A stretch of DNA of 64,000 bases, from positions 1 to 64,000 of the forward strand of contig NZ_JBGCCH010000012.1 of NCBI RefSeq assembly GCF_041261205.1, given 5' to 3'. A program made the position numbers and the translations under genes. The stretch is from Catenulispora sp. MAP5-51 (lineage in GTDB: Bacteria > Actinomycetota > Actinomycetes > Streptomycetales > Catenulisporaceae). The notes under the pieces were generated by a model. That model was given only the letters and a program-made list of their open reading frames with translations, made no database searches and was not told the origin of the DNA. Below are positions 161-17,361 of the stretch, piece after piece (position 1 is the stretch's first letter; each line of letters begins with the position of its first letter).

Positions 161-483
161 CTTCAGCTCTTGCTCTTGCCCTTGCCCTTGCCCTTGCCTG
201 TCGCAGTTGACCTTGACTGTGGCTTTAGGCTCGACCACCTGCCCACACCACCGCCGCCCCGCGAAACCAGCGGCACCCCCGACCCGCGCCACCAACGGAT
301 CCCGCAAACCGTGCGCGAGGCCGTAAACGCCCCTAAAACCCACCACCCAACCGCACCAACGCCCCAAGCCACCCCACCCCGACCCACCCACAAGCCACAG
401 GCCCCAAAAAGCCCGGGGCCAGGGCGCCTGGCGACGCCCCAGCCCCGGCTCCGCCCCCGGCACGGGGCGAAGCTCCGCGAGAC
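161..483. other. Intergenic tail with a CTTGCC hexamer run, no gene
   Basis: This stretch holds four perfect CTTGCC units at 175-198, then a strongly C-rich plus strand. A GGCCCC/GGGGCC inverted repeat at 400-420 with a nine-base loop could terminate transcription of the minus-strand oxidase gene ending at 484. Segments near 230-330 resemble, in inverted orientation, sequence around 25690-25780, so the repeat element probably extends through here. No start codon with a ribosome-binding site and no recognisable protein was found. Confidence 0.6.
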
Positions 484-9042: not shown

Positions 9043-10371
9043 GTGGTGGGGACGGCGATGGGCACGGCGCTCGCCTTGTGCGGCGCCATGGCCGGCTGGG
9101 GTGTCACGGTACTGATCACACGGCGGCGCGTCGCGCTGCTGCGCGTGCGCTGTACGGACGCCGAGGCCGAGAACACACGCTGGCGTCAGGCGCACAGCGG
9201 CCGCGCCCGCGAGCCGGCCGAGGACCCGGCCGCGCGCGGCGACAGCGAGCCGGGGCCGGCGGCCGGCGCCGGACCGGACTTCGCCGAGCGCGCCTTCGCG
9301 AACATCGGCCGCCGGGTCCAGGCCATCGTGCACAAGCAGCTCGGAGACGTCAGCGAGATGCAGGAGCGGCACGGCGGCAGTCCGGCCGTGTTCGCCGACC
9401 TGATGCGCCTGGACCACGCGACGGCCTTGATAGGCCGGTTCGCCGACTCCCTGGTGGTGCTGGCCGGCGAGCGCCCGGGCCGCCAGTGGTCCGAGCCGGT
9501 GCCGTTGTTCAGCGTGCTGCGCGGGGCGATGTCCAGGATCGTCGACTACCGGCGGGTGGAGCTCGCCGAGACGCCGAACGTGGAGCTGGCCGGGTCGGCG
9601 GTGGAGGCGGTGGTGCACGCTCTGGCCGAACTGCTCGACAACGCGACCCGGTATTCGCCTCCTGATTCGCCGGTGACGCTCACGGCGCGCCGGACCTCCG
9701 GCGGGCTGGTGATCGAGGTCGTGGACGCCGGGGTGGGGCTGGCCCCACAGGCGGCCGAACACGTCGCCCGCGTGCTCGCCGATCCCGGTGGGCCCGGGCT
9801 GGACCTCGCCGACGTGGCAGGCTCCCCGCGGCTGGGTCTGGCGGTGATAGGGCGGCTCGCGCACACGGTCGGGTTCCAAGCCACCGTGCGGCCGGCGGCG
9901 GCCGGCGGGGTGCGGGCGCAGCTGTTCCTGCCTGCGGAACTCGTGCTCACGGGGGCCACCGCGACTCCGGTCGTGCCCCGCGTTCCGGCGCAGACCGGAC
10001 GTGCGCAGGCGGAGGACGCGCGGGCGTCCGACGAGCCGGGAACGCGGGCGAACGGTACGGCCGACGGACGGCCCGGCGGGCTGCCGCAGCGGCGGAGGCG
10101 GCCGCCGACGGCGCCGCCGACCGTGGCGCGGGCGGTTCGGGCGCCGGGGCTGGGTTCGGGTTCGGGTCTGGATCCGAATACAGGCGCGGTTGCGAATACA
10201 GGTGCGGGTGCGGGTGCGACCGACCGCGGCCCCTTCGACGCGAAATCCGGGCCCGGGCAGTGGCTGGACGCCTTCCGCGGCGACATCGACGAGACCGACG
10301 ACACCGGCACCCACATCCACACCCATACCGACACCGACACCGACGACCGAGAGCGAGGTGCGGCGTCGTGA
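9043..10371 (+). CDS. cvnA: Conservon sensor-like histidine kinase (CvnA type)
   Basis: 442-residue membrane-associated kinase-like protein. One N-terminal transmembrane helix (about residues 6-26) replaces the large extracellular sensor seen in many CvnA proteins. The dimerisation region carries LDHATALIGR with a candidate phospho-acceptor His, and the HATPase domain has N-box ELLDNATRYSPP and G-box VVDAGVGLAP. A disordered Gly/Ala/Thr/Asp-rich C-terminal tail of about 120 residues includes alternating TH and TD pairs. GTG 9043 is taken from GGAGG 11 bases upstream; GTG 9046 or ATG 9058 are possible. The gene overlaps the next by GTGA. Conservons are heterotrimeric-G-protein-like systems controlling development and metabolism in Streptomyces. 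Confidence 0.9.
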   Translation: MVGTAMGTALALCGAMAGWGVTVLITRRRVALLRVRCTDAEAENTRWRQAHSGRAREPAEDPAARGDSEPGPAAGAGPDFAERAFANIGRRVQAIVHKQLGDVSEMQERHGGSPAVFADLMRLDHATALIGRFADSLVVLAGERPGRQWSEPVPLFSVLRGAMSRIVDYRRVELAETPNVELAGSAVEAVVHALAELLDNATRYSPPDSPVTLTARRTSGGLVIEVVDAGVGLAPQAAEHVARVLADPGGPGLDLADVAGSPRLGLAVIGRLAHTVGFQATVRPAAAGGVRAQLFLPAELVLTGATATPVVPRVPAQTGRAQAEDARASDEPGTRANGTADGRPGGLPQRRRRPPTAPPTVARAVRAPGLGSGSGLDPNTGAVANTGAGAGATDRGPFDAKSGPGQWLDAFRGDIDETDDTGTHIHTHTDTDTDDRERGAAS

Positions 10372-10769
10372 TCCGGCCGCAGATGCAGATGGACTGGCTG
10401 CTCCAGGGGCTGGTGGACGGCGTTCCGGGGGCCCGCCACGCGCTGGTGCTCACCGCGGACGGGATGCGGCTGGCGCACTACGCGGTCGAGGAGGACGTGG
10501 CCGACCGCCTGGCCGCGATCTGCGCGGGCCTGCAGAGCCTGTCGTCGGCGGTGGCGGAGATGTTCCCGGGTGGGGACCAGCGCACGCGGATGATCGTCAT
10601 CGAGGTCGGCGGCGGGTTCTTCTACGTGATGGCCGCCGGCGAGGGAGCGTTCGTGGCCGTGGTGGCCGACGAGGGTGTGGACGCGGGGCTCATGGGCCGG
10701 CAGCTGCGCGATCTGGTGGTGCGGATCGGGGAGCATCTGGCGAGCCCGGCGCGCCGGGAGTGCCGGTGA
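10368..10769 (+). CDS. cvnB: Conservon roadblock/LC7 protein (CvnB type)
   Basis: 133-residue roadblock/LC7 domain protein; signature features are DGVPGARHALVLTADGM at the start and the central VIEVGGGFFYVMAAGEG strands. Family members bind the conservon GTPase and modulate its nucleotide state. GTG 10368 overlaps the upstream stop (GTGA), giving tight translational coupling; ATG 10383 is an alternative start. It lies second in a four-gene operon in the canonical A-B-C-D order. Confidence 0.92.
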   Translation: MIRPQMQMDWLLQGLVDGVPGARHALVLTADGMRLAHYAVEEDVADRLAAICAGLQSLSSAVAEMFPGGDQRTRMIVIEVGGGFFYVMAAGEGAFVAVVADEGVDAGLMGRQLRDLVVRIGEHLASPARRECR

Positions 10770-10773
10770 TCTG

Positions 10774-11292
10774 GTGAGCACCGGATCGCCGCCGCCGCGG
10801 ACGTCGTGGCTGGGTTCCGACCCGGCGCAGCCGCCGCCGCAATCGCCGCCGTCACCACCGCCCCGGCCCCGGCATGCCGCCGCCGACCCGGGTCCGCCGG
10901 TCGCGCCCGTTCCCCGCCGGGGCGAGGCCGCGAACCCCGAACCCGTAGCGGCCCCGCCAGCCGCACGGCGCAACACGCTGGAGCGCGTCTACGTCATCAC
11001 CGGCGGACGCTCCGCCCCGGCCGCCGACCTGGACCTGGTCACGCTGATCGTGGCGGCCGACGCCGCACCTCCCGGGCTGGCGCCGGAGCAGGCCACGATC
11101 ATGCGGCTGTGCCGCCGTCCGCTGTCGGTCGCGGAGGTGTCGGCCCATGTGCGGCTGCCGTTCAGCGCGACCGCGATCCTCGTCGCGGACCTGCTGACGG
11201 CCGGTCTGCTCGTCCAGCGCCGGCCGATCCGGGCCGCCGGCGTCGATCCCGAGTTGCTCCAGAAGGTGATCAATGGTCTCCGGCGCCTCTGA
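10774..11292 (+). CDS. cvnC: Conservon DUF742 protein (CvnC type)
   Basis: 172 residues. A Pro-rich N-terminal 55 residues precede the DUF742 winged-helix-like domain: VYVITGGRSAPAADLDLVTL, CRRPLSVAEVSAHVRLP and the closing LLQKVINGLRRL. GTG 10774 is the only in-frame start near the previous stop; the longer frame from 10675 is a shadow of the roadblock gene. The product is a conserved conservon component thought to bridge kinase and GTPase modules. Its 3' end overlaps the GTPase gene by 20 bases. Confidence 0.92.
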   Translation: MSTGSPPPRTSWLGSDPAQPPPQSPPSPPPRPRHAAADPGPPVAPVPRRGEAANPEPVAAPPAARRNTLERVYVITGGRSAPAADLDLVTLIVAADAAPPGLAPEQATIMRLCRRPLSVAEVSAHVRLPFSATAILVADLLTAGLLVQRRPIRAAGVDPELLQKVINGLRRL

Positions 11293-11911
11293 CCGCGCCC
11301 TCGCCGCCGACTCCCCCGAACCGCCGGGCGCCGCCGACTCCCCCGGCGCGCCCGGCCTGCCGGCGACCACCTCGGTCGCCTTGAAGATCGCGGTGGTCGG
11401 CCCGCTGGGCGTGGGCAAGACCACCTTCGTCACCTCGGTGAGCGACATCTCGCCGCTGACCACCGAGGAGCCGATGTCGGGCCCGGTGCCGGACGGCACG
11501 CCGGCGACGAAGACCACGACCACCGTCGCCATGGACTTCGGCCGCATCAGCATCGACGAGCACGTGGTCCTCTACCTGTTCGGCACGCCGGGCCAGGAGC
11601 GTTTCTGGTTCCTGTGGGACGGCCTGGTGGAAGGGGCGCTGGGCGCGATCGTGCTCGTCGACGTCCGGCGCCTGGAGGAGAGCTTCGACGTCCTGGAACG
11701 CCTGGAGGACCGCGGCGTCCCGTTCGTCGTCGCGGCGAACTGCTTCCCCGAGGCGCCGGTCTACCCGGTGGAGGAGCTGCGCGCGGCGATGGACCTGTCG
11801 GGCTGGGTGCCCGTCATCCTGTGCGACGCGCGCGAACGCTCCTCCTGCCGGGATGTCCTGCTCGACCTGAGCACCTACCTGTTGGAGCTGGTGCCGAACA
11901 CGATGCGGTAG
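11273..11911 (+). CDS. cvnD: Conservon small GTPase (CvnD type)
   Basis: 212-residue Ras-like ATP/GTP-binding protein. An Ala/Pro-rich leader of about 35 residues precedes Walker A GPLGVGKTT, the switch region TTTTVAMDFG, switch II FGTPGQERFWFLWDG and a base-specificity region around VAANCF; the canonical NKxD is absent, as is usual in the conservon/MglA-like group. It cycles between nucleotide states under control of the roadblock and DUF742 partners. The start overlaps the DUF742 gene by 20 bases. The 3' end overlaps the convergent thaumatin-like gene by 37 bases, so read-through in either direction would be antisense. Confidence 0.92.
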   Translation: MVSGASDRALAADSPEPPGAADSPGAPGLPATTSVALKIAVVGPLGVGKTTFVTSVSDISPLTTEEPMSGPVPDGTPATKTTTTVAMDFGRISIDEHVVLYLFGTPGQERFWFLWDGLVEGALGAIVLVDVRRLEESFDVLERLEDRGVPFVVAANCFPEAPVYPVEELRAAMDLSGWVPVILCDARERSSCRDVLLDLSTYLLELVPNTMR

Positions 11912-12939
11912 TCGCAGTCGCCCTTGCAGGACATGGTCGCCGAGTCGTCGAAGGCGTACGAGTAGGCGTAGGGCTCAGCGTCCTTGTACACCAGCTTGGC
12001 GTAGTCGACGGGCCACTTCGCCGGATCGCAGTTCTGGCGGCCGGACCACGAGCCGGTGCAGCAGTAGGCGTCGGTGCCGAACGCCGCGCACGGGGTCGTG
12101 CACGCCACGACCTGCCCGGCCGCCTTCACCTGCATGGGGCCCGGGCACACGATCGGCTTGGTGCACGCGCCCTGATAACAGCCGTCCTGGGAGACCGGGT
12201 CCGGTCCGACGCGGTGGCTGGTGTTGATGTACATCGGCAGATTCGAGCCGTCGACCAGGCTCACGTCATAGAAGTCCAGACCGTCGAAGGAGTCCAGGGT
12301 CAGCTCGGCGAGGGTGGCCGGCGGGGGCGCGGTGCCGCGGCACTGGAACACGCCGCCGCAGTCGCCGCTCAGACAGTGGCCGGTGCCGGAGGCGGAGAAG
12401 GAGCAGCCGGTACGGCCCCAGACCCGGCCGCCCCAGCCCTGCGGGACCGCGAACGTGACGCTCTGGCCCGGGTCGAGGCGCCAGCCGGTCTGCGGGATCG
12501 GGTGCTGGGCGTTCGGGTTCGTCGCGGCCCAGATGGTCTGGGTGTCGGCGTTCACGATGGTGATCAGGTGCGAGCCGGCGGGGCGGGCGACGGATCCGGA
12601 GCTGGACGTGGTGGTGGAGGTGGAGGTGCTGTTCGAGGCGCTGTGCGTCGGCGAGCTTGAGCGCGCCGAAGAGGATGGCGCCGAGGATGGCGCCGAGGAT
12701 GCCGAGGTCGCCGACGAGGAGGAGCCCGGTGGGCTTTGGGCCGCGGACGTCGATGGGGGAACCGATCCCGATGTGCTCTGCGCCGCACCCGACTTCGAGG
12801 CCTGAATACCGCCGCTTTGGCCCGTTCCGAATCCGGCGAGCCACAGGACGAGCGCGAGCGCCGCCACGCCGACCAGTCCGCCCGCCACGATCGGCCGGCG
12901 GCTTCGGGTTCCGCCGCCCCGGTGTCCGTGCCCGCTCAT
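11875..12939 (-). CDS. Membrane-tethered thaumatin-like protein 1
   Basis: 354 residues. A single transmembrane segment at about 17-38 lacks an evident signal-peptidase site, then a Ser/Thr/Ala-rich stalk (about 40-120) and a thaumatin-like domain (about 123-354). Diagnostic blocks are QTIWAAT, GGRVWGRTGC, GHCLSGDC and FYDVSLVDGSNLPMYI, all close to plant PR-5 proteins. The domain has 14 Cys (plant forms commonly have 16; the pair linking the two termini is missing). Thaumatin-like proteins bind or weakly cleave beta-1,3-glucans and many are antifungal. ATG 12939 follows GGGGAG and overlaps the upstream stop as ATGA. It is the last gene of the three-gene operon headed by the sigma-GH128 fusion. 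Confidence 0.88.
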   Translation of the reverse strand: MSGHGHRGGGTRSRRPIVAGGLVGVAALALVLWLAGFGTGQSGGIQASKSGAAQSTSGSVPPSTSAAQSPPGSSSSATSASSAPSSAPSSSARSSSPTHSASNSTSTSTTTSSSGSVARPAGSHLITIVNADTQTIWAATNPNAQHPIPQTGWRLDPGQSVTFAVPQGWGGRVWGRTGCSFSASGTGHCLSGDCGGVFQCRGTAPPPATLAELTLDSFDGLDFYDVSLVDGSNLPMYINTSHRVGPDPVSQDGCYQGACTKPIVCPGPMQVKAAGQVVACTTPCAAFGTDAYCCTGSWSGRQNCDPAKWPVDYAKLVYKDAEPYAYSYAFDDSATMSCKGDCDYRIVFGTSSNR

Positions 12940-13976
12940 GGGCTCACTCCCCACGTAATCCGATAGCTGCACTCCCCCGTGCATGTCAGAACACTGGTGG
13001 CGTCGTCGTCCACGTAGGAGTACGCGAACGGCTCGGCCTTCTTGAACACCGCCGCGGAGTCGACCGGCCACTTGGTCGGGTCGCACGCGGCGCGGCTCGA
13101 CCACTGGCCGAGGCAGCACATCTGGTCGCCGCCCAGGGCCAGGCACGAGCTCTTGCACGCGGTGACCGCGCCGCCGCGCACCACTTGGAGCACCGTCGGG
13201 CACGAGGCGCTGGCGTCGCGGGTGCAACCGGCCTTGGTGCAGCCGTCCGGACTCATCGGGTCCGGGGCGCGGCCGCCGGACTGGTTGACGTACATCGGCA
13301 GGTTGTTGCCCTCGACGAGGCTGACGTCGTAGAAGTCCATGCCCTGCCAGGCGTTGAGGTTGAACTCGGCCAGCGTGGAGGGGAACTCGCCCCAGGTGCT
13401 GCCGCACTGGAACTTGCCCTGGCAGTCCCCGGACAGGCAGTGGCCGGTGCCGGCGGCGTTGAACGTGCAGCCGGCGCGCGCCCAGACGCGGACGTCCCAG
13501 TGGTCGGGGATGCTGATGGTGATGCTGGCGCCCGGGTTCAGGACCCAGCCGGTCGCGGCGACGGGGTGCTTGGGGTCGGCGGCGACGGCGGGCCAAATGG
13601 TCTGGGAGAGCTTGTTGACCATGGTGAGGGTTCGGGGGCCGGCGGTGGTGGTGCCCGCGCCAGTGCCGGTGCTGGTGCCGGTCCCAGGTGGCGCGGCGGT
13701 GGTCGAGGAAGCAGATGTACCGGCTTTCGGCGCGCTGGTCGGCGATGCGGTGGTTAGTGGCGTGGCCAATGGCGATCGCGACGGCGACGAGCTCGACTGC
13801 TGTGGCGTGGACGGCGATGCGCCGGGCTGTGACGTGTTCGACGCGGCCACGGTCGAGACTGCCGGTCCGGCCGACGGAACCGCGGTCCCGCTGGAACAGG
13901 CGGCGGCCGCGACCGCGCAGACCACCGCGGCGCTCAGCGCCAGCAGCCACCGCATCGGTATCTCAGGATGCTTCAT
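12936..13976 (-). CDS. Thaumatin-like lipoprotein 2
   Basis: 346 residues. A lipoprotein signal peptide with lipobox VAAAAC (Cys27) is followed by a Ser/Thr/Pro-rich stalk (28-113) and a thaumatin-like domain (116-346) with TIWPAVA, GHCLSGDC, FYDVSLVEGNNLPMYV and 14 Cys. It is clearly a paralogue of the downstream protein but with a different anchor: lipid here, a helix there. The gene overlaps the preceding sigma-GH128 gene by 14 bases and the next by 4, so the three are translationally linked. Role inferred from family: binding fungal or plant beta-1,3-glucan at the cell surface. Confidence 0.9.
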   Translation of the reverse strand: MKHPEIPMRWLLALSAAVVCAVAAAACSSGTAVPSAGPAVSTVAASNTSQPGASPSTPQQSSSSPSRSPLATPLTTASPTSAPKAGTSASSTTAAPPGTGTSTGTGAGTTTAGPRTLTMVNKLSQTIWPAVAADPKHPVAATGWVLNPGASITISIPDHWDVRVWARAGCTFNAAGTGHCLSGDCQGKFQCGSTWGEFPSTLAEFNLNAWQGMDFYDVSLVEGNNLPMYVNQSGGRAPDPMSPDGCTKAGCTRDASASCPTVLQVVRGGAVTACKSSCLALGGDQMCCLGQWSSRAACDPTKWPVDSAAVFKKAEPFAYSYVDDDATSVLTCTGECSYRITWGVSP

Positions 13977-15900
13977 ACGCCACCCCCATGGGTGTCGGCG
14001 AGCCGTTCTGGAACAGCGCGGTTCCCGTCTGGGCGCCGGAGGCCGCCAGGCCGAACCACGCGTACCGCTCGACGTAGGGCAGTGAATCGAGCATCGCCGC
14101 GGAGGCGGTCACGAAGGCGGCCTGCTGGTTCGGGGCCGGATACTGCGTGCCGCCGGAGAAGGAGATGAGCGCGTACTCGGTGACCCAGATCGGCAGGTGG
14201 TAGCGGTCGTGGATGGCTTGGAGGTACGACCGCAGCTGATCGACCGCGGGGCCGGTCCGGAAGTCGGAGCCGTACCAGTGCACGGTGATGAAGTCGACGC
14301 GGTAGCCGCGCGCCGCCGCGCCGGCCATGAAGCGGTCGAGCCAGCCGCCGGGCGTGGCCGCGCCGGCGGCGACCGCCGGGCTGCCCAGCCGCAGGCCGGT
14401 GGCCTGGAGCCCGGGCCACAGGTCCAGGGCCTGCTCGACGGTCATGTTGGACTGCGAGCCCATGTCGGGCTCGTTGAAGCCCAGCAGGGTGGAGCCCTGG
14501 GAGCGCGCGGTGGCCAGGGTCGCGGCATCGGCGTTCTTCGCGCCCCAGATCATCGGGACGAACTCCGGGCCCGCCTTGCCGAGCTGGTCGATGCGGCTCG
14601 GCGACCAGTCGTAGTACCAGGAGGCCTTGGAGGCGGTCAGCGCGGTGTCGAGGGCGGGGGCGCCCCAGGCGGCGACGCCCTTTTTCGGCCCTGAACGGGC
14701 AGTGGGGGATGCCGGCGGCTTCGGGGCCGGGTGGGAGCTGGAGGTGGCCGGCGATGGGGTCGGCTTCGGGCTCGGGCTGGAAGACGGGCTCGGCGAGGGG
14801 GCGGCTGCGGGGGCCGCGCTGGGGGATGTGGTGGTCGTGGCGGCGATCGAGGTGGGTGCCGGGACGGCGCCGGATGTCGAGGAGCCGGCCCACACAGCGG
14901 TCGCCGCGACCCCGACCGCGCTGGCCGTCACCACCGCGGCGATCACCGCCGGGGCTTTGGCGGGTAAGAAGCCGAGAAGCTTGCCGGAGCCGTGGCCGAG
15001 CGCCGACGACCCCGTCGAGCCATGAGCGCCGCCCGCCGAACCGCCGGCATGCCCGTGCCCCTGCCCGAGCCCCATCGCCCCCGGCCCGCCGGCCGCCGTC
15101 GCCGCCTTGAACACGGCAGCGGCCAGCGCCGTCGGCACCACCGCCAGCGGCAGTCCGGCCAGCAGCTTCTCCACCGGCACCAGGTCCCGGGAGGGCGCGT
15201 CGCAGATCTCGCAGTCCCGCGTGTGGCCCACGAAGCGCTTGCGCCACAAGGCGTTGCGGTGTCCATCCCATCTGCTCGTCAGGTCCGACAGGCCCCGGCA
15301 GCGCTCCGGCGCGCGCAGCGCCCGCACGACCACGCGGGTCGCCGACAGCTGCTGCTTCAGGCGCTGGATGCGCACGGCGGCCTGGTTCTGCGGCACGCCC
15401 AGGGCCTCGGCCAGTTCGGCGCGGTCCAGGCGGCCGTGTTCGGTCAGCCACCACAGGCCCAGCAACTCGCGGTTGCCGTCGTCCAGCCAGCCCGCGGCCT
15501 CGGCGACCTCGCGGCGCTGGCCGGTCAGGTCGAGCCTGAGCGCGCTCAGGTCGGCGAAGTCGGCGGCGGGGTCGGGGACGGCCGCGGCCTCGTCCAGTGG
15601 CATGGTGCGCTCCTGCACGGCGCGGTGCGCGCGCTGGTGGTCGTGGACCTGCCGGATCGCGACGGCGACCAGCCAGGACCGGAAGGCCGCGGGGTCGCGG
15701 ACGTCGCCCAGGCCGCGGACGGCGCGGACCATCGTCTCCTGGACCGCGTCGTCGACGTCGGCGTGCGCCCGCAGCGCGAAGCCGATGATGTTGTAGACCA
15801 GCGGCAGTGCTTCGGCGAGCAGGTCGCGCAGCGCGTTCTGGTCTCCGCGCTGCGCCGCCCGCACGGTGGCGGCGTCGAATCCGCCCCGCGGTGCTCTCAT
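13963..15900 (-). CDS. Fusion: ECF sigma factor - ZAS-like motif - transmembrane helix - GH128 glucanase-type domain
   Basis: 645 residues in one frame. Residues 1-195 are an ECF sigma factor: region 2 (LVYNIIGFALRAHADVDDAV, FRSWLVAVAIRQVHDHQR) and region 4 (ELAEALGVPQNQAAVRIQRL). Residues 201-233 hold Cys201 and H226-x3-C230-x2-C233, the spacing of zinc anti-sigma domains. A transmembrane helix spans about 317-338, then a Pro/Ser/Thr linker to about 405. Residues 408-640 match the GH128 (Asl1-like) TIM barrel with both expected catalytic glutamates, E477 in LGFNEPD and E575 in IWVTEYA. Topology therefore puts sigma inside and the glucanase outside. It heads an operon with two thaumatin-like genes. 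Family knowledge: GH128 acts on beta-1,3-glucan, and sigma factors with extracytoplasmic C-terminal extensions exist in Actinobacteria. Confidence 0.9.
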   Translation of the reverse strand: MRAPRGGFDAATVRAAQRGDQNALRDLLAEALPLVYNIIGFALRAHADVDDAVQETMVRAVRGLGDVRDPAAFRSWLVAVAIRQVHDHQRAHRAVQERTMPLDEAAAVPDPAADFADLSALRLDLTGQRREVAEAAGWLDDGNRELLGLWWLTEHGRLDRAELAEALGVPQNQAAVRIQRLKQQLSATRVVVRALRAPERCRGLSDLTSRWDGHRNALWRKRFVGHTRDCEICDAPSRDLVPVEKLLAGLPLAVVPTALAAAVFKAATAAGGPGAMGLGQGHGHAGGSAGGAHGSTGSSALGHGSGKLLGFLPAKAPAVIAAVVTASAVGVAATAVWAGSSTSGAVPAPTSIAATTTTSPSAAPAAAPSPSPSSSPSPKPTPSPATSSSHPAPKPPASPTARSGPKKGVAAWGAPALDTALTASKASWYYDWSPSRIDQLGKAGPEFVPMIWGAKNADAATLATARSQGSTLLGFNEPDMGSQSNMTVEQALDLWPGLQATGLRLGSPAVAAGAATPGGWLDRFMAGAAARGYRVDFITVHWYGSDFRTGPAVDQLRSYLQAIHDRYHLPIWVTEYALISFSGGTQYPAPNQQAAFVTASAAMLDSLPYVERYAWFGLAASGAQTGTALFQNGSPTPMGVAYEAS

Positions 15901-15987
15901 GCCGGGCCGTCCTCTGTATCGTCTGAATCGTCCTCGGGCGATGCGCCCGACGGTGATGGTTGTGCGATGACCATATAGAGGAGACCG

Positions 15988-16004
15988 TGCGGGTCAGACC
16001 CGCA
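15988..16004. promoter_or_regulatory. Perfect 17-bp palindrome upstream of the sigma-GH128 gene
   Basis: TGCGGGTCAGACCCGCA is an exact inverted repeat (8+1+8) 88-104 bases upstream of the fusion start and just downstream of the Rieske stop at 16031. It could be an operator for the fusion operon or a terminator for the ECF-Rieske unit; the lack of a following T-run on the minus strand slightly favours an operator. The rest of the 130-base gap shows no recognised ECF promoter. Confidence 0.5.
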
Positions 16005-16030
16005 TAACACGAATTTTGAACGCGCTTGGC

Positions 16031-16726
16031 TCAGGCTCGATTCGGCGCGTACACCTGGACGTTCCCGGAGTCGACGCGGACCGCGAGCCGGGGCAGCGCG
16101 GGCAGCGGCGAGCCGCCGAGCGGACGCGTCAGCGGTGCCCCGGCCGTGGTGAAGGTGGCGCCGTGGCAGGGACAGGCGAGCCGGTCGTGGGGGGTGTCCA
16201 GGCGCAGGCGGCAGCCCTGGTGTGTGCAGAACCCGGACACGGCCTGGATACGTCCCGACTCCCGCCGGACGAAGCCCGACACGGCCCCGAGGTCGAACGA
16301 CAGCACCGCGCCTTCGGGCAGGTCCGCGGCGGCGGCGACGGTCTGCCAGCTGCCGGCGGTCGGCGTCAGCTCCTGGCCGCCGTGCTCGGCGGCCGGAGAC
16401 GCCGAACCGACCAGCGCCGCCTCGACGCCGACGCCCGCGACGACTCCGGTCGCGGTCAGAGCGGTCGCGGTCAGAAAGCGGCGACGGCCCCGGATGCGGT
16501 GCGCCTCCGCGACGGCCGGCGTCGGGGGCGGGGCGTCCTGCTGCTCGGCCAGGCGGCGGCGCAGGTCCTCGACGAACGCCTCGCGCGGGCGCTGCGCGTC
16601 GGGGACGGCGGCGGCCAGGTCGATGGCGGCGCGCGCGACGGCGATGTCGTCCTCGGTGGGCGCGAAGGCCGCGGGGCGGCGCCGGCGCAGCAGGCTGTCC
16701 ACGTAGCGGTCGATCGGGCGCTTCAT
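16031..16726 (-). CDS. Membrane-anchored Rieske [2Fe-2S] protein
   Basis: 231 residues. Residues 1-78 are a charged, likely cytoplasmic region; RGRRRF precedes a hydrophobic segment (about 84-106) that is either a Tat signal or an anchor. The Rieske domain (about 125-228) has ligands C167-x-H169 and C185-x2-H188, with the disulfide pair C172/C187. It carries one 2Fe-2S cluster and transfers electrons, as in quinol oxidases, but no partner oxidase subunits are encoded nearby. ATG 16726 overlaps the stop of the ECF sigma gene (ATGA), so the two proteins are made together. The unusually long N-terminal region could contact the sigma factor; that is inference. Confidence 0.9.
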   Translation of the reverse strand: MKRPIDRYVDSLLRRRRPAAFAPTEDDIAVARAAIDLAAAVPDAQRPREAFVEDLRRRLAEQQDAPPPTPAVAEAHRIRGRRRFLTATALTATGVVAGVGVEAALVGSASPAAEHGGQELTPTAGSWQTVAAAADLPEGAVLSFDLGAVSGFVRRESGRIQAVSGFCTHQGCRLRLDTPHDRLACPCHGATFTTAGAPLTRPLGGSPLPALPRLAVRVDSGNVQVYAPNRA

Positions 16727-17361
16727 GACGCTTCCCCTTCCTTGTCCAGTCCAGCGGCTCGGCGCAGGGCGCGGTGTTGCAGCACCTTGGCGTTGGCCAC
16801 CGACACGCCCAGCTCGGCGGCGGCGGCCTTGATGGAGTACCCCCGCAGGAAGCGCAGGGTCAGGATGGCGCGGTGCCGTTCGGGCAGCCCCGCCAGGATC
16901 CTCCCGATCCGATCGTCCGTCTGGCCGCTCCGCTCGTCCTGCGCCGGTCCGGAGGTGAAGTCTTCCAGGCCGGCCTCGCCGACGTCGATCACCGTGACCT
17001 GGTGGCCCAGCGTCGAGCGCCAGTGCGTGGCCAGGACGGTGCGCGCCGTGGTGAGCAGGTAGGCCCGCACCTCCCCGACGCTGGCGGTGGTCCGCAGCGG
17101 GCCGAACGCGGTCAGGAACACCTGGGAGGTCAGGTCCTCGGCGTCGTGGCGGTTACCGACCTTGGCGTACATGAGCCGGTAGATCCGTTCGACGTTGTCG
17201 GCGTAGATCGCCTCCCAGCCGGGATACGCGGCGGTGGGAAGCGTCCTGGGCCCGTCGGCCACGGGGCGCTCGGGCGCCGCCGCGCCCGCGGCCTCACGAC
17301 GCGGGGCGGGCATGCCGTGTCCCAGAACCCTGACAAGTCGCGCCAGGCGCCTGCTGCTCAC
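16723..17361 (-). CDS. ECF-type RNA polymerase sigma factor
   Basis: 212 residues. An unstructured N-terminus of about 45 residues precedes sigma region 2 (WEAIYADNVERIYRLMYAKV, HDAEDLTSQVF) and region 4 (LPERHRAILTLRFLRGYSIK then AAAELGVSVANAKVLQHRAL). It directs RNA polymerase to a specific promoter class. A promoter with TGTAACC, a 15-base spacer and CTGCGA lies 68-95 bases upstream, and an equivalent one faces the divergent cupredoxin operon, suggesting autoregulation. No classical zinc anti-sigma gene is adjacent; the overlapping Rieske gene occupies that position. Confidence 0.92.
   Translation of the reverse strand: MSSRRLARLVRVLGHGMPAPRREAAGAAAPERPVADGPRTLPTAAYPGWEAIYADNVERIYRLMYAKVGNRHDAEDLTSQVFLTAFGPLRTTASVGEVRAYLLTTARTVLATHWRSTLGHQVTVIDVGEAGLEDFTSGPAQDERSGQTDDRIGRILAGLPERHRAILTLRFLRGYSIKAAAAELGVSVANAKVLQHRALRRAAGLDKEGEAS

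What the first reader, a model, noticed from the sequence alone, without database searches (positions are those of the whole stretch)
11875..15900. One-polypeptide sigma factor-glucanase sensor in an operon with two tethered thaumatin-like proteins
Seen: residues 1-195 of the 645-residue protein are an ECF sigma factor, 226-233 an Hx3Cx2C motif as in zinc anti-sigma domains, 317-338 a transmembrane helix, and 408-640 a GH128-type domain with both catalytic glutamates (E477, E575). The next two genes overlap it (14 and 4 bases) and encode thaumatin-like proteins. Known: GH128 cleaves beta-1,3-glucan; thaumatin-like proteins bind it; ECF factors with extracytoplasmic extensions exist in Actinobacteria. 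Inferred: binding or cleaving fungal glucan outside releases or activates the sigma domain inside, switching on an antifungal or glucan-use programme. All three products are stalked at the surface, suggesting a single sensing or attack apparatus.
Basis: partly seen in the sequence, partly recalled or inferred. Interest (0 to 1): 0.92.

Follow-up and report, generated by a model that had tools for sequence, protein, structure and literature searches.

The report
Self-switching sigma receptor with glucanase ectodomain
A soil actinobacterium carries one membrane protein that is a gene switch inside the cell and a fungal-wall-type sugar enzyme outside, made in one operon with two thaumatin-like proteins and apparently switching on its own operon, which suggests a self-amplifying surface device for meeting fungi or their debris.

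Summary
Window 15900-13963 (-) encodes one 645-aa protein: ECF sigma, zinc anti-sigma motif (C201, H226, C230, C233), transmembrane helix, Pro/Ser stalk, GH128 domain with both catalytic Glu. Two tethered thaumatin-like proteins (TLPs) follow with 14- and 4-base overlaps. Intact relatives exclude an assembly error. The kind is known: ECF52/ECF53 proteins share this plan and some are already predicted to carry glycosyl hydrolase domains. New here: (1) a promoter motif, TGTTAT-N17/18-GTCTCC, before the operon and before many family members; the strict form occurs once in each of five genomes searched, pointing to autoregulation rather than a wide antifungal programme; (2) in another family a TLP gene has its own copy, divergent from a sigma-GH128 gene; (3) TLP and GH128 recur together, also as one-polypeptide fusions in Streptomyces, in different GH128 lineages; (4) sister sigma cores in one genome carry different ectodomains. 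Against: many sigma-GH128 genomes lack TLPs, one TLP stands alone, 12 of 34 family members lack a good motif, topology has a second weak hydrophobic stretch, and no ligand, activity or release has been shown. Verdict: new variant of a known kind; beta-1,3-glucan sensing is inferred.

The parts
15980..16009 (-). predicted ECF promoter: -35 TGTTAT (16009-16004), 18-base spacer, -10 GTCTCC (15985-15980)
   Evidence: conserved in 5 Catenulispora and, with a 17-base spacer, in Micromonosporaceae homologues; one match in the genome, 0 in the reversed-pattern control; 0 in 100 shuffles of the window
13963..15900 (-). sigma-ZAS-TM-GH128 fusion gene, 645 aa
15316..15900 (-). ECF sigma domain (aa 1-195)
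   Evidence: PF04542, TIGR02937; AF2 model, pLDDT 82, matches SigW of the SigW-RsiW complex
15160..15312 (-). zinc anti-sigma (ZAS-like) segment, aa 197-247, C201-H226-C230-C233
   Evidence: four residues invariant in 34 of 34 family members; short helices in the model with the motif on them
14887..14955 (-). likely transmembrane helix, aa 316-338
   Evidence: best Kyte-Doolittle window 2.02; a weaker stretch at 240-272, best 1.85
14692..14883 (-). Pro/Ser/Thr/Ala-rich stalk, aa 340-403
   Evidence: 57 of 64 residues are P, S, T or A
13966..14688 (-). GH128 domain, aa 405-645, catalytic E477 and E575
   Evidence: PF11790; 6uaq; both Glu invariant in 10 of 10 aligned fusions
12936..13976 (-). 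TLP1: lipoprotein-like, stalked thaumatin-like protein, 346 aa
   Evidence: PF00314; best solved relative 2ahn; lipobox-like Cys in three copies
11875..12939 (-). TLP2: N-terminally anchored, stalked thaumatin-like protein, 354 aa
   Evidence: PF00314; hydrophobic anchor aa 17-37

Best explanation
A one-polypeptide transmembrane sigma receptor. The ECF sigma domain is held inactive in cis by the zinc anti-sigma segment on the inner face of the membrane. The stalked GH128 domain outside meets beta-1,3-glucan (fungal or oomycete wall, or free glucan). Ligand engagement or cleavage leads, most likely through regulated proteolysis in or near the membrane helix, to release of the sigma domain. The freed sigma factor recognises TGTTAT-N17/18-GTCTCC, found only before this operon (in G340 before the receptor, with one mismatch, and before the TLP gene), so its main output is more receptor plus the tethered thaumatin-like proteins: a self-amplifying loop that coats the cell with a glucan-cleaving sensor and glucan-binding partners. 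Shown by sequence: architecture, operon, conserved catalytic and zinc residues, conserved motif, TLP-GH128 linkage, ectodomain exchange. Inferred: topology, in-cis inhibition (sequence plus model), ligand, release step, purpose.
For: Domains and residues. AF2 model of sigma+ZAS (pLDDT 82): both sigma lobes align with SigW-RsiW (5wuq/5wur, Z 13.6, rmsd 2.9-3.0 over 154-157 residues), RpoE-NepR (5uxx, 160 residues, rmsd 2.9) and CnrH-CnrY (4cxf, 149, rmsd 2.6), whereas the three RNAP-bound ECF rows aligned over both lobes (6kon, 6jcy, 9m98) give rmsd 27-28. Motif: 14 of 34 family upstream regions perfect, 22 of 34 with at most one mismatch; 100 shuffles gave none; of 17 rows not used to find it (L182-L188, L195, L196, L198, L201, L202, L205-L209), 13 have at most one mismatch. 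One strict match per genome in 5 of 5 genomes, reversed control 0. In G340 the strict match precedes TLP and a one-mismatch copy, pointing the other way, precedes a sigma-GH128 gene. TLPs occur in 8 of 394 class genomes, all 8 among the 24 with strong GH128: one ORF in 4, adjacent genes in 1, beside sigma-GH128 in 2, both at contig ends in 1. In the genus, TLP pair and strong GH128 are in the same 5 of 10 genomes. Precedent: proteolytic activation shown for IutY and supported for SCO4117 (PMC8999054, PMC5826349, passages).
Against: No ligand, enzyme activity, promoter activity or proteolysis has been tested. Sigma-GH128 without TLP: 3 of 5 class-sample genomes (G068, G224, G284) and 5 of 5 named loci outside Catenulispora. 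One Streptomyces plasmid TLP, 66% identical to TLP1, has no GH128 or sigma gene within 7 kb. 12 of 34 family members have two or more mismatches to the motif (L092, L089 both, L090 both, L091, L012, L120b, L184, L185, L186, L209), and the Nocardia fusion L009, outside those 34, has no match with one mismatch or none. The scan was for near-exact sites, so a wider regulon with degenerate sites is not excluded. In the model comparison other anti-sigma complexes (1or7, the top row, 106 residues; 6in7, 4nqw, 6dxo, 8z6g, 2z2s) align over one lobe only, and the ZAS part is not covered. A second hydrophobic stretch after the zinc motif leaves the topology open. The full-length model is poor (pLDDT 59). 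Co-occurrence counts are inflated by shared descent: 6 of the 8 TLP genomes are one family.
Confidence: 0.55

Rival explanations
1. Surface-displayed enzyme with a built-in autoregulator: the GH128 domain is mainly an effector or nutrient enzyme anchored at the membrane, and the signal for the sigma part is something else (redox or zinc at the CHCC site, membrane or wall stress). The loop keeps the display going once it is on.
For: CHCC zinc sites of some anti-sigma factors are redox switches (recalled, RsrA type); the four residues are invariant whatever the ectodomain, 34 of 34; catalytic Glu kept in 10 of 10; a free GH128 enzyme without sigma (L008, with a ricin-type lectin) lies inside a clade of fused ones.
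Against: Ectodomains differ between very close sigma cores (L089 CAP and L090 ricin, sisters at 100/99), which fits exchange of ligands better than one common inner signal.
Confidence: 0.2
2. Surface tether for fungal contact in which the TLPs are the main binders or weapons (antifungal, GH152-like) and the sigma-GH128 protein is a co-receptor; the operon serves attack on fungi rather than feeding.
For: TLP and GH128 occur together repeatedly, also fused; plant antifungal TLPs are relatives by sequence (osmotin, zeamatin; their activity is recalled); R167, E204, D217 and D325 are invariant in 7 of 7 aligned TLPs, in keeping with an acidic cleft motif (recalled).
Against: Position 222 of TLP1 is Glu where TLP2 has Asp; no antifungal assay; the strict motif gives no link to other genes.
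Confidence: 0.2
3. Chance neighbours: TLP genes happen to sit beside a routine ECF52/53-type regulator.
For: Many sigma-GH128 loci lack TLPs.
Against: Gene overlap kept in 5 of 5 Catenulispora copies; TLP pair and strong GH128 jointly present or absent in 10 of 10 genus genomes; divergent arrangement with the motif in a different family; fused TLP-GH128 ORFs elsewhere.
Confidence: 0.03

Closest known systems
ECF52 sigma factors (SCO4117 of Streptomyces coelicolor)
   Same: sigma domain, zinc finger, TM, proline-rich stalk and carbohydrate-type outer domain in one chain; Actinobacteria only; evidence for autoregulation and proteolytic activation (PMC5826349, PMC8999054, passages)
   Different: SCO4117 has a module of type smart00776 and a proposed site CSGYN-17-SRHA; here GH128 with TLP partners and TGTTAT-N17/18-GTCTCC. 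None of the 22 sigma-family members scanned with Pfam listed a module of that (NPCBM) type (thresholds from 1 to 0.001)
ECF53 sigma factors
   Same: sigma + ZAS + 1-2 TM + long extension in Actinobacteria; some ECF52/ECF53 predicted to hold glycosyl hydrolase domains, without experiments (PMC8999054, PMC10766802, passages)
   Different: group assignment could not be tested (no ECF group models held); GH128, TLP partners and this motif do not appear in the passages seen
SigI/RsgI of Clostridium thermocellum
   Same: carbohydrate modules outside, including a GH10 domain; sigma control inside; proteolytic relay (PMC12203970, passages)
   Different: there sigma and anti-sigma are two proteins and the sigma is SigI; here one chain with an ECF sigma and a zinc anti-sigma motif
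GH128 enzyme of 6uaq (called AmGH128_I, subgroup I, from recall)
   Same: nearest solved relative, E 2e-81, both catalytic Glu kept
   Different: that construct is a free enzyme domain; here it is the outer domain of a sigma receptor
Streptomyces TLP-GH128 proteins (WP_328661709.1, WP_328565003.1)
   Same: the same two domain families joined, annotated only as glycosyl hydrolase
   Different: one polypeptide without a sigma part; TLPs of this type are 28-29% identical to TLP1 and their GH128 domains lie in another clade

Membership tests
ECF sigma factor with fused ZAS-TM extension (ECF52/ECF53 kind) | ECF sigma regions 2 and 4 at the N-terminus | tested here: met
   (region 4 by TIGR02937 and the model; Pfam region 4 did not reach its cut-off)
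ECF sigma factor with fused ZAS-TM extension (ECF52/ECF53 kind) | zinc anti-sigma motif Hx3Cx2C in the extension | tested here: met
   H226, C230, C233 plus C201 invariant in 34 of 34; zinc binding not tested
ECF sigma factor with fused ZAS-TM extension (ECF52/ECF53 kind) | one or two TM helices and a long extension | tested here: met
   best stretch 318-338, weaker one at 240-272; 307 residues follow aa 338
ECF52 | membership by ECF52 group model | not testable with these tools
   no ECF group models held; classification papers not held
ECF52 | carbohydrate-binding module as outer domain (as in SCO4117) | tested here: not met
   a GH128 catalytic domain instead
ECF53 | membership by ECF53 group model | not testable with these tools
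   as for ECF52
GH128 | PF11790 match and two catalytic Glu | tested here: met
GH128 | beta-1,3-glucan hydrolysis | not testable with these tools
   needs an assay
Thaumatin-like proteins (PF00314) | profile match over the whole domain, many Cys | tested here: met
   E 1e-62 and 2e-60 over the full profile; 14 Cys in each domain
RsgI-type anti-sigma sensors | separate anti-sigma chain paired with SigI | tested here: not met
   one chain with an ECF sigma and a ZAS motif; works like, is not a member

The most novel reading that the evidence does not exclude
A closed, self-amplifying contact-sensing device: a sigma factor whose receptor is a working beta-1,3-glucanase, where catalysis or glucan capture outside frees the transcription factor inside, and whose only target is the operon that builds more of the receptor and its thaumatin-like co-binders. 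It belongs to a wider actinobacterial family that keeps sigma, lock and often the promoter motif and swaps the outer domain (GH128, CAP, ricin lectin, GH99-like, AbfB): a natural plug-in receptor platform for transcription.
Probability: 0.35. Interest if true: 0.8.

Novelty: new variant of a known kind. Interest (0 to 1): 0.62.

Why it matters
Fused sigma receptors of Actinobacteria have few assigned ligands or promoters. Here the outer domain names a testable ligand class, one promoter motif gives a ready reporter, and the recurrent pairing of thaumatin-like proteins with GH128 proposes a function for bacterial thaumatin-like proteins. If right, it is a modular one-protein receptor that turns an outer sugar contact directly into transcription.

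Tried and rejected
Rejected: assembly error or frameshift (intact fusions in many genomes). Rejected: chance neighbourhood of the TLPs (see rivals). Not supported: a genome-wide regulon. The strict motif is unique. Relaxing the -35 gives 4-8 hits per genome against 0-3 for the reversed control. Only two kinds of hit recur in all four Catenulispora genomes: this operon and a TGTGAC-N17-GTCTCC copy upstream of the CAP-type paralogue (gene read in G000, and in L213-L215 for the other three). Of the remaining four hits in G000, three lie inside called genes (C20, C58, C4) and one (C46) lies in no called gene and stays unexplained; the recurring pairs in G008:C5 and G008:C40 are also inside genes. 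The remaining hits of G001, G008, G009 and G340 were not examined.

Led nowhere: full-length AF2 model (pLDDT 59). The VIA-align look does not cover the ZAS segment (rows span 3-188), so its fold rests on motif and predicted helices. Literature, seen as listings only: GH128 with sigma factor (one paper, not on this by title and abstract), thaumatin-like with GH128 (three, none on bacteria of this kind by title and abstract), sigma factor/thaumatin/Streptomyces/glucan (15 of 249 listed), thaumatin-like/actinobacteria/Catenulispora (15 of 188 listed, none of the 15 holds thaumatin-like), thaumatin+Streptomyces+sigma factor (five, none on point by title). None reports this operon or TLP-GH128 fusions, but key ECF classification papers are not held, so absence from print is not shown.

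Mended on checking: in the GH128 tree the Nocardia row L009 was labelled as a free enzyme; one search shows a sigma domain in its ORF, and recounts with 15 sigma, 15 free, 8 TLP rows and L010 (cut by a contig end) unlabelled: TLP 2 changes, sigma 5. L009 is not in the 34-row sigma set. No row was dropped for length in that tree. The 17- and 34-row sigma sets are selections from 58 match rows plus named loci and own paralogues. In one search, loci of 23 of the 24 strong-GH128 genomes were rescanned (the own genome was known); the second GH128 frame of G284 was not examined. Weak GH-catalytic-core hits (E about 1e-4, just over the curated cut-off) in G001 and G006 were not counted as GH128.


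Full report
What is there. Window 15900-13963 on the minus strand is one ORF of 645 codons. It holds an ECF sigma factor (PF04542 at 30-93; TIGR02937 at 23-186), a zinc anti-sigma motif, a transmembrane helix (best window 318-338), a Pro/Ser/Thr/Ala stalk and a GH128 domain (PF11790 at 421-642, E 2e-52). The nearest solved structure is 6uaq (E 2e-81); deposited variants of that protein change the positions that align with E477 (6uat) and E575 (6ufl). The next two genes, 13976-12936 and 12939-11875, are thaumatin-like proteins (PF00314, E 1e-62 and 2e-60), one with a lipoprotein-like N-terminus and one with an N-terminal anchor, each followed by a Ser/Thr/Pro-rich stretch. One caution: a weaker hydrophobic stretch follows the zinc motif (240-272, best 1.85). 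Across 34 family members the stretch near the zinc motif ranges from 0.3 to 2.2, and some members have only one strong stretch, early or late. One crossing with the GH128 domain outside is the likely reading, since the stalk and the outer domains of paralogues (CAP, ricin lectin) are of secreted types, but it is not proven.

The fusion is real and old. Named relatives: Amorphoplanes auranticolor (L002), Actinoplanes (L003, L011), Spirilliplanes (L006), Nocardia sp. NRRL S-836 (L009), and Catenulispora rubra, where contig ends cut the gene (L004, L005). The window's genus is inferred to be Catenulispora: the G004 contig with the operon has the same length and gene coordinates as the C. rubra contig of L005. 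Both catalytic Glu are invariant in the 10 fusions aligned. C201, H226, C230 and C233 are invariant in all 34 sigma cores aligned, whatever the outer domain.

A receptor family that swaps its outside. The window's genome has seven sigma cores of this kind: the GH128 one, two with CAP domains, one with a ricin-type lectin, one with a GH99-like domain, and two that end soon after the zinc motif with no hydrophobic stretch there. A profile of the sigma+ZAS part gives 58 match rows in 38 of 394 class genomes at E 1e-30 or better (six candidates per genome were scored). Of the 28 loci read (L182-L209), 22 end in CAP-like sequence (four of these scanned with Pfam, one of them below its cut-off), 3 in GH128, 1 in AbfB and 2 in a part without a Pfam match. 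On a tree of 34 cores GH128 sits in two groups (2 changes; one origin not ruled out), and the own-genome CAP (L089) and ricin (L090) cores are sisters at 100/99, so an outer domain was exchanged recently.

Inside: a locked sigma factor. An AF2 model of sigma+ZAS from the 34-row alignment has mean pLDDT 82. Its best Foldseek match is SigW from the SigW-RsiW complex with zinc. VIA-align places both sigma lobes on SigW-RsiW (Z 13.6, rmsd 2.9-3.0 over 154-157 residues), RpoE-NepR and CnrH-CnrY, while three RNAP-bound ECF factors aligned over 136-145 residues give rmsd 27-28; but other anti-sigma complexes, among them the top row 1or7 (106 residues), align over one lobe only. This agrees with, and does not prove, a sigma domain held closed by its own anti-sigma segment; that segment itself was not covered by the matches.

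The promoter. The regions upstream of five Catenulispora operons share TGTTAT-N18-GTCTCC; four Micromonosporaceae homologues have TGTTAT (one GGTTAT)-N17-GTCTCC. In the window it lies at 16009-15980. In five whole genomes (G000, G001, G008, G009, G340) the strict pattern occurs exactly once each, always at this system, and the reversed control never. In G340, a different family, that match precedes a thaumatin-like gene, and about 30 bases away, pointing the other way, a one-mismatch copy precedes the first of two tandem sigma-GH128 genes. Across 34 family upstream regions, 14 have a perfect match and 22 at most one mismatch; 100 dinucleotide shuffles gave none; the antisense strand gave 1 perfect (the G340 TLP promoter) and 1 more with one mismatch. 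Seventeen rows were not used to find the motif; 13 of them match with at most one mismatch. Twelve of the 34 do not (L092, L089 both, L090 both, L091, L012, L120b, L184, L185, L186, L209), nor does L009. The CAP paralogue L092 has TGTGAC-N17-GTCTCC, and the same site precedes its counterpart in G001, G008 and G009. I read this as autoregulation of each receptor, with paralogues of one genome kept apart by their -35 elements (inference).

Thaumatin-like proteins and GH128 belong together. In the genus, the TLP pair and the strong GH128 occur in the same 5 of 10 genomes and are both absent from the other 5, two of which are under 90% complete. In the class sample TLPs occur in 8 of 394 genomes and strong GH128 (E below 1e-40) in 24 of 394 (same handles); all 8 are among the 24 (hypergeometric 5e-11, not corrected for shared descent). 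In four of the eight the two domains form one ORF (G098, G172, G200, G357), in one they are adjacent genes (G162), in two the TLPs lie beside a sigma-GH128 gene (G000, G340), and in one both lie at contig ends (G380). On Streptomyces plasmids, 5 records hold a TLP match: 4 under a gene annotated glycosyl hydrolase (2 of these 4 scanned: TLP plus GH128 in one ORF) and 1 alone. The GH128 domains joined or adjacent to TLPs in that group lie in a starred clade apart from the sigma-fused ones, and its TLPs are only 28-29% identical to TLP1, which suggests that the pairing arose more than once; loss from a common ancestor is not excluded. Against it: three of five class-sample genomes with sigma-GH128 have no TLP (G068, G224, G284), five of five named loci outside Catenulispora have none within the DNA held, about 6 kb on either side, and one plasmid TLP 66% identical to TLP1 has no GH128 within 7 kb.

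How it most likely works. Shown by sequence: the parts, the operon, the motif, the linkage. Inferred: GH128 and the TLPs engage beta-1,3-glucan (GH128 activity and TLP binding recalled from the families); engagement leads to cleavage of the receptor near the membrane, as proposed for ECF52 and shown for IutY (PMC8999054, PMC5826349, passages); the sigma domain then drives its own operon. The output is a local positive loop, not a broad programme, unless degenerate sites exist.

What is known. ECF52 and ECF53 are fused sigma-ZAS-TM-extension proteins of Actinobacteria; a review states that some have computationally predicted glycosyl hydrolase domains, without experiments (PMC10766802, passages). 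The surveys behind this (Huang 2015, Pinto 2019) and the 2021 classification are not held and were not read. Clostridial RsgI proteins show the same logic in two chains, including a GH10 sensor (PMC12203970, passages). So the kind is known; GH128 as the outer domain, the TLP partners, the family motif and the TLP-GH128 fusions are the new parts as far as the held library shows.

Noticed in passing
window 16031-17361 (-): An ECF sigma gene overlapping by 4 bases a Rieske iron-sulphur protein gene whose product is weakly anti-sigma-like in its N-terminal half (NF052375, E 0.0024); possibly a redox-sensing anti-sigma factor. The pair also precedes the operon in L116 and L117.
   Followed up: partly
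window 9043-11911 (+): Conservon-like operon (HATPase, Roadblock, DUF742, Ras-like GTPase by Pfam) converging on TLP2 with a 37-base 3' overlap; the GTPase gene is kept near the TLPs in L116, L117 and L119.
   Followed up: partly
L089 1484-2368 (+) and L090 4597-5418 (+): Two sigma-ZAS paralogues without a TM stretch or outer domain after the zinc motif, each near a full-length paralogue on the same contig; possible soluble partners or remnants.
   Followed up: partly
L089 2832-4571 (-) and L090 5457-7052 (-): Sister sigma cores with different outer domains (CAP, ricin lectin): a recent exchange in one genome.
   Followed up: partly
L206 1480-3120 (+), L207 1480-3156 (+): Sigma receptors whose outer part has no Pfam match; both carry a perfect promoter motif.
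   Followed up: no
L212 6995-7792 (+): Thaumatin family protein on a Streptomyces sp. NBC_01176 plasmid, 66% identical to TLP1, without GH128 or sigma neighbours.
   Followed up: partly
G000:C46:34735-34763 (-), L221: One relaxed promoter-motif hit in the own genome that lies in no called gene and has no explanation yet.
   Followed up: no
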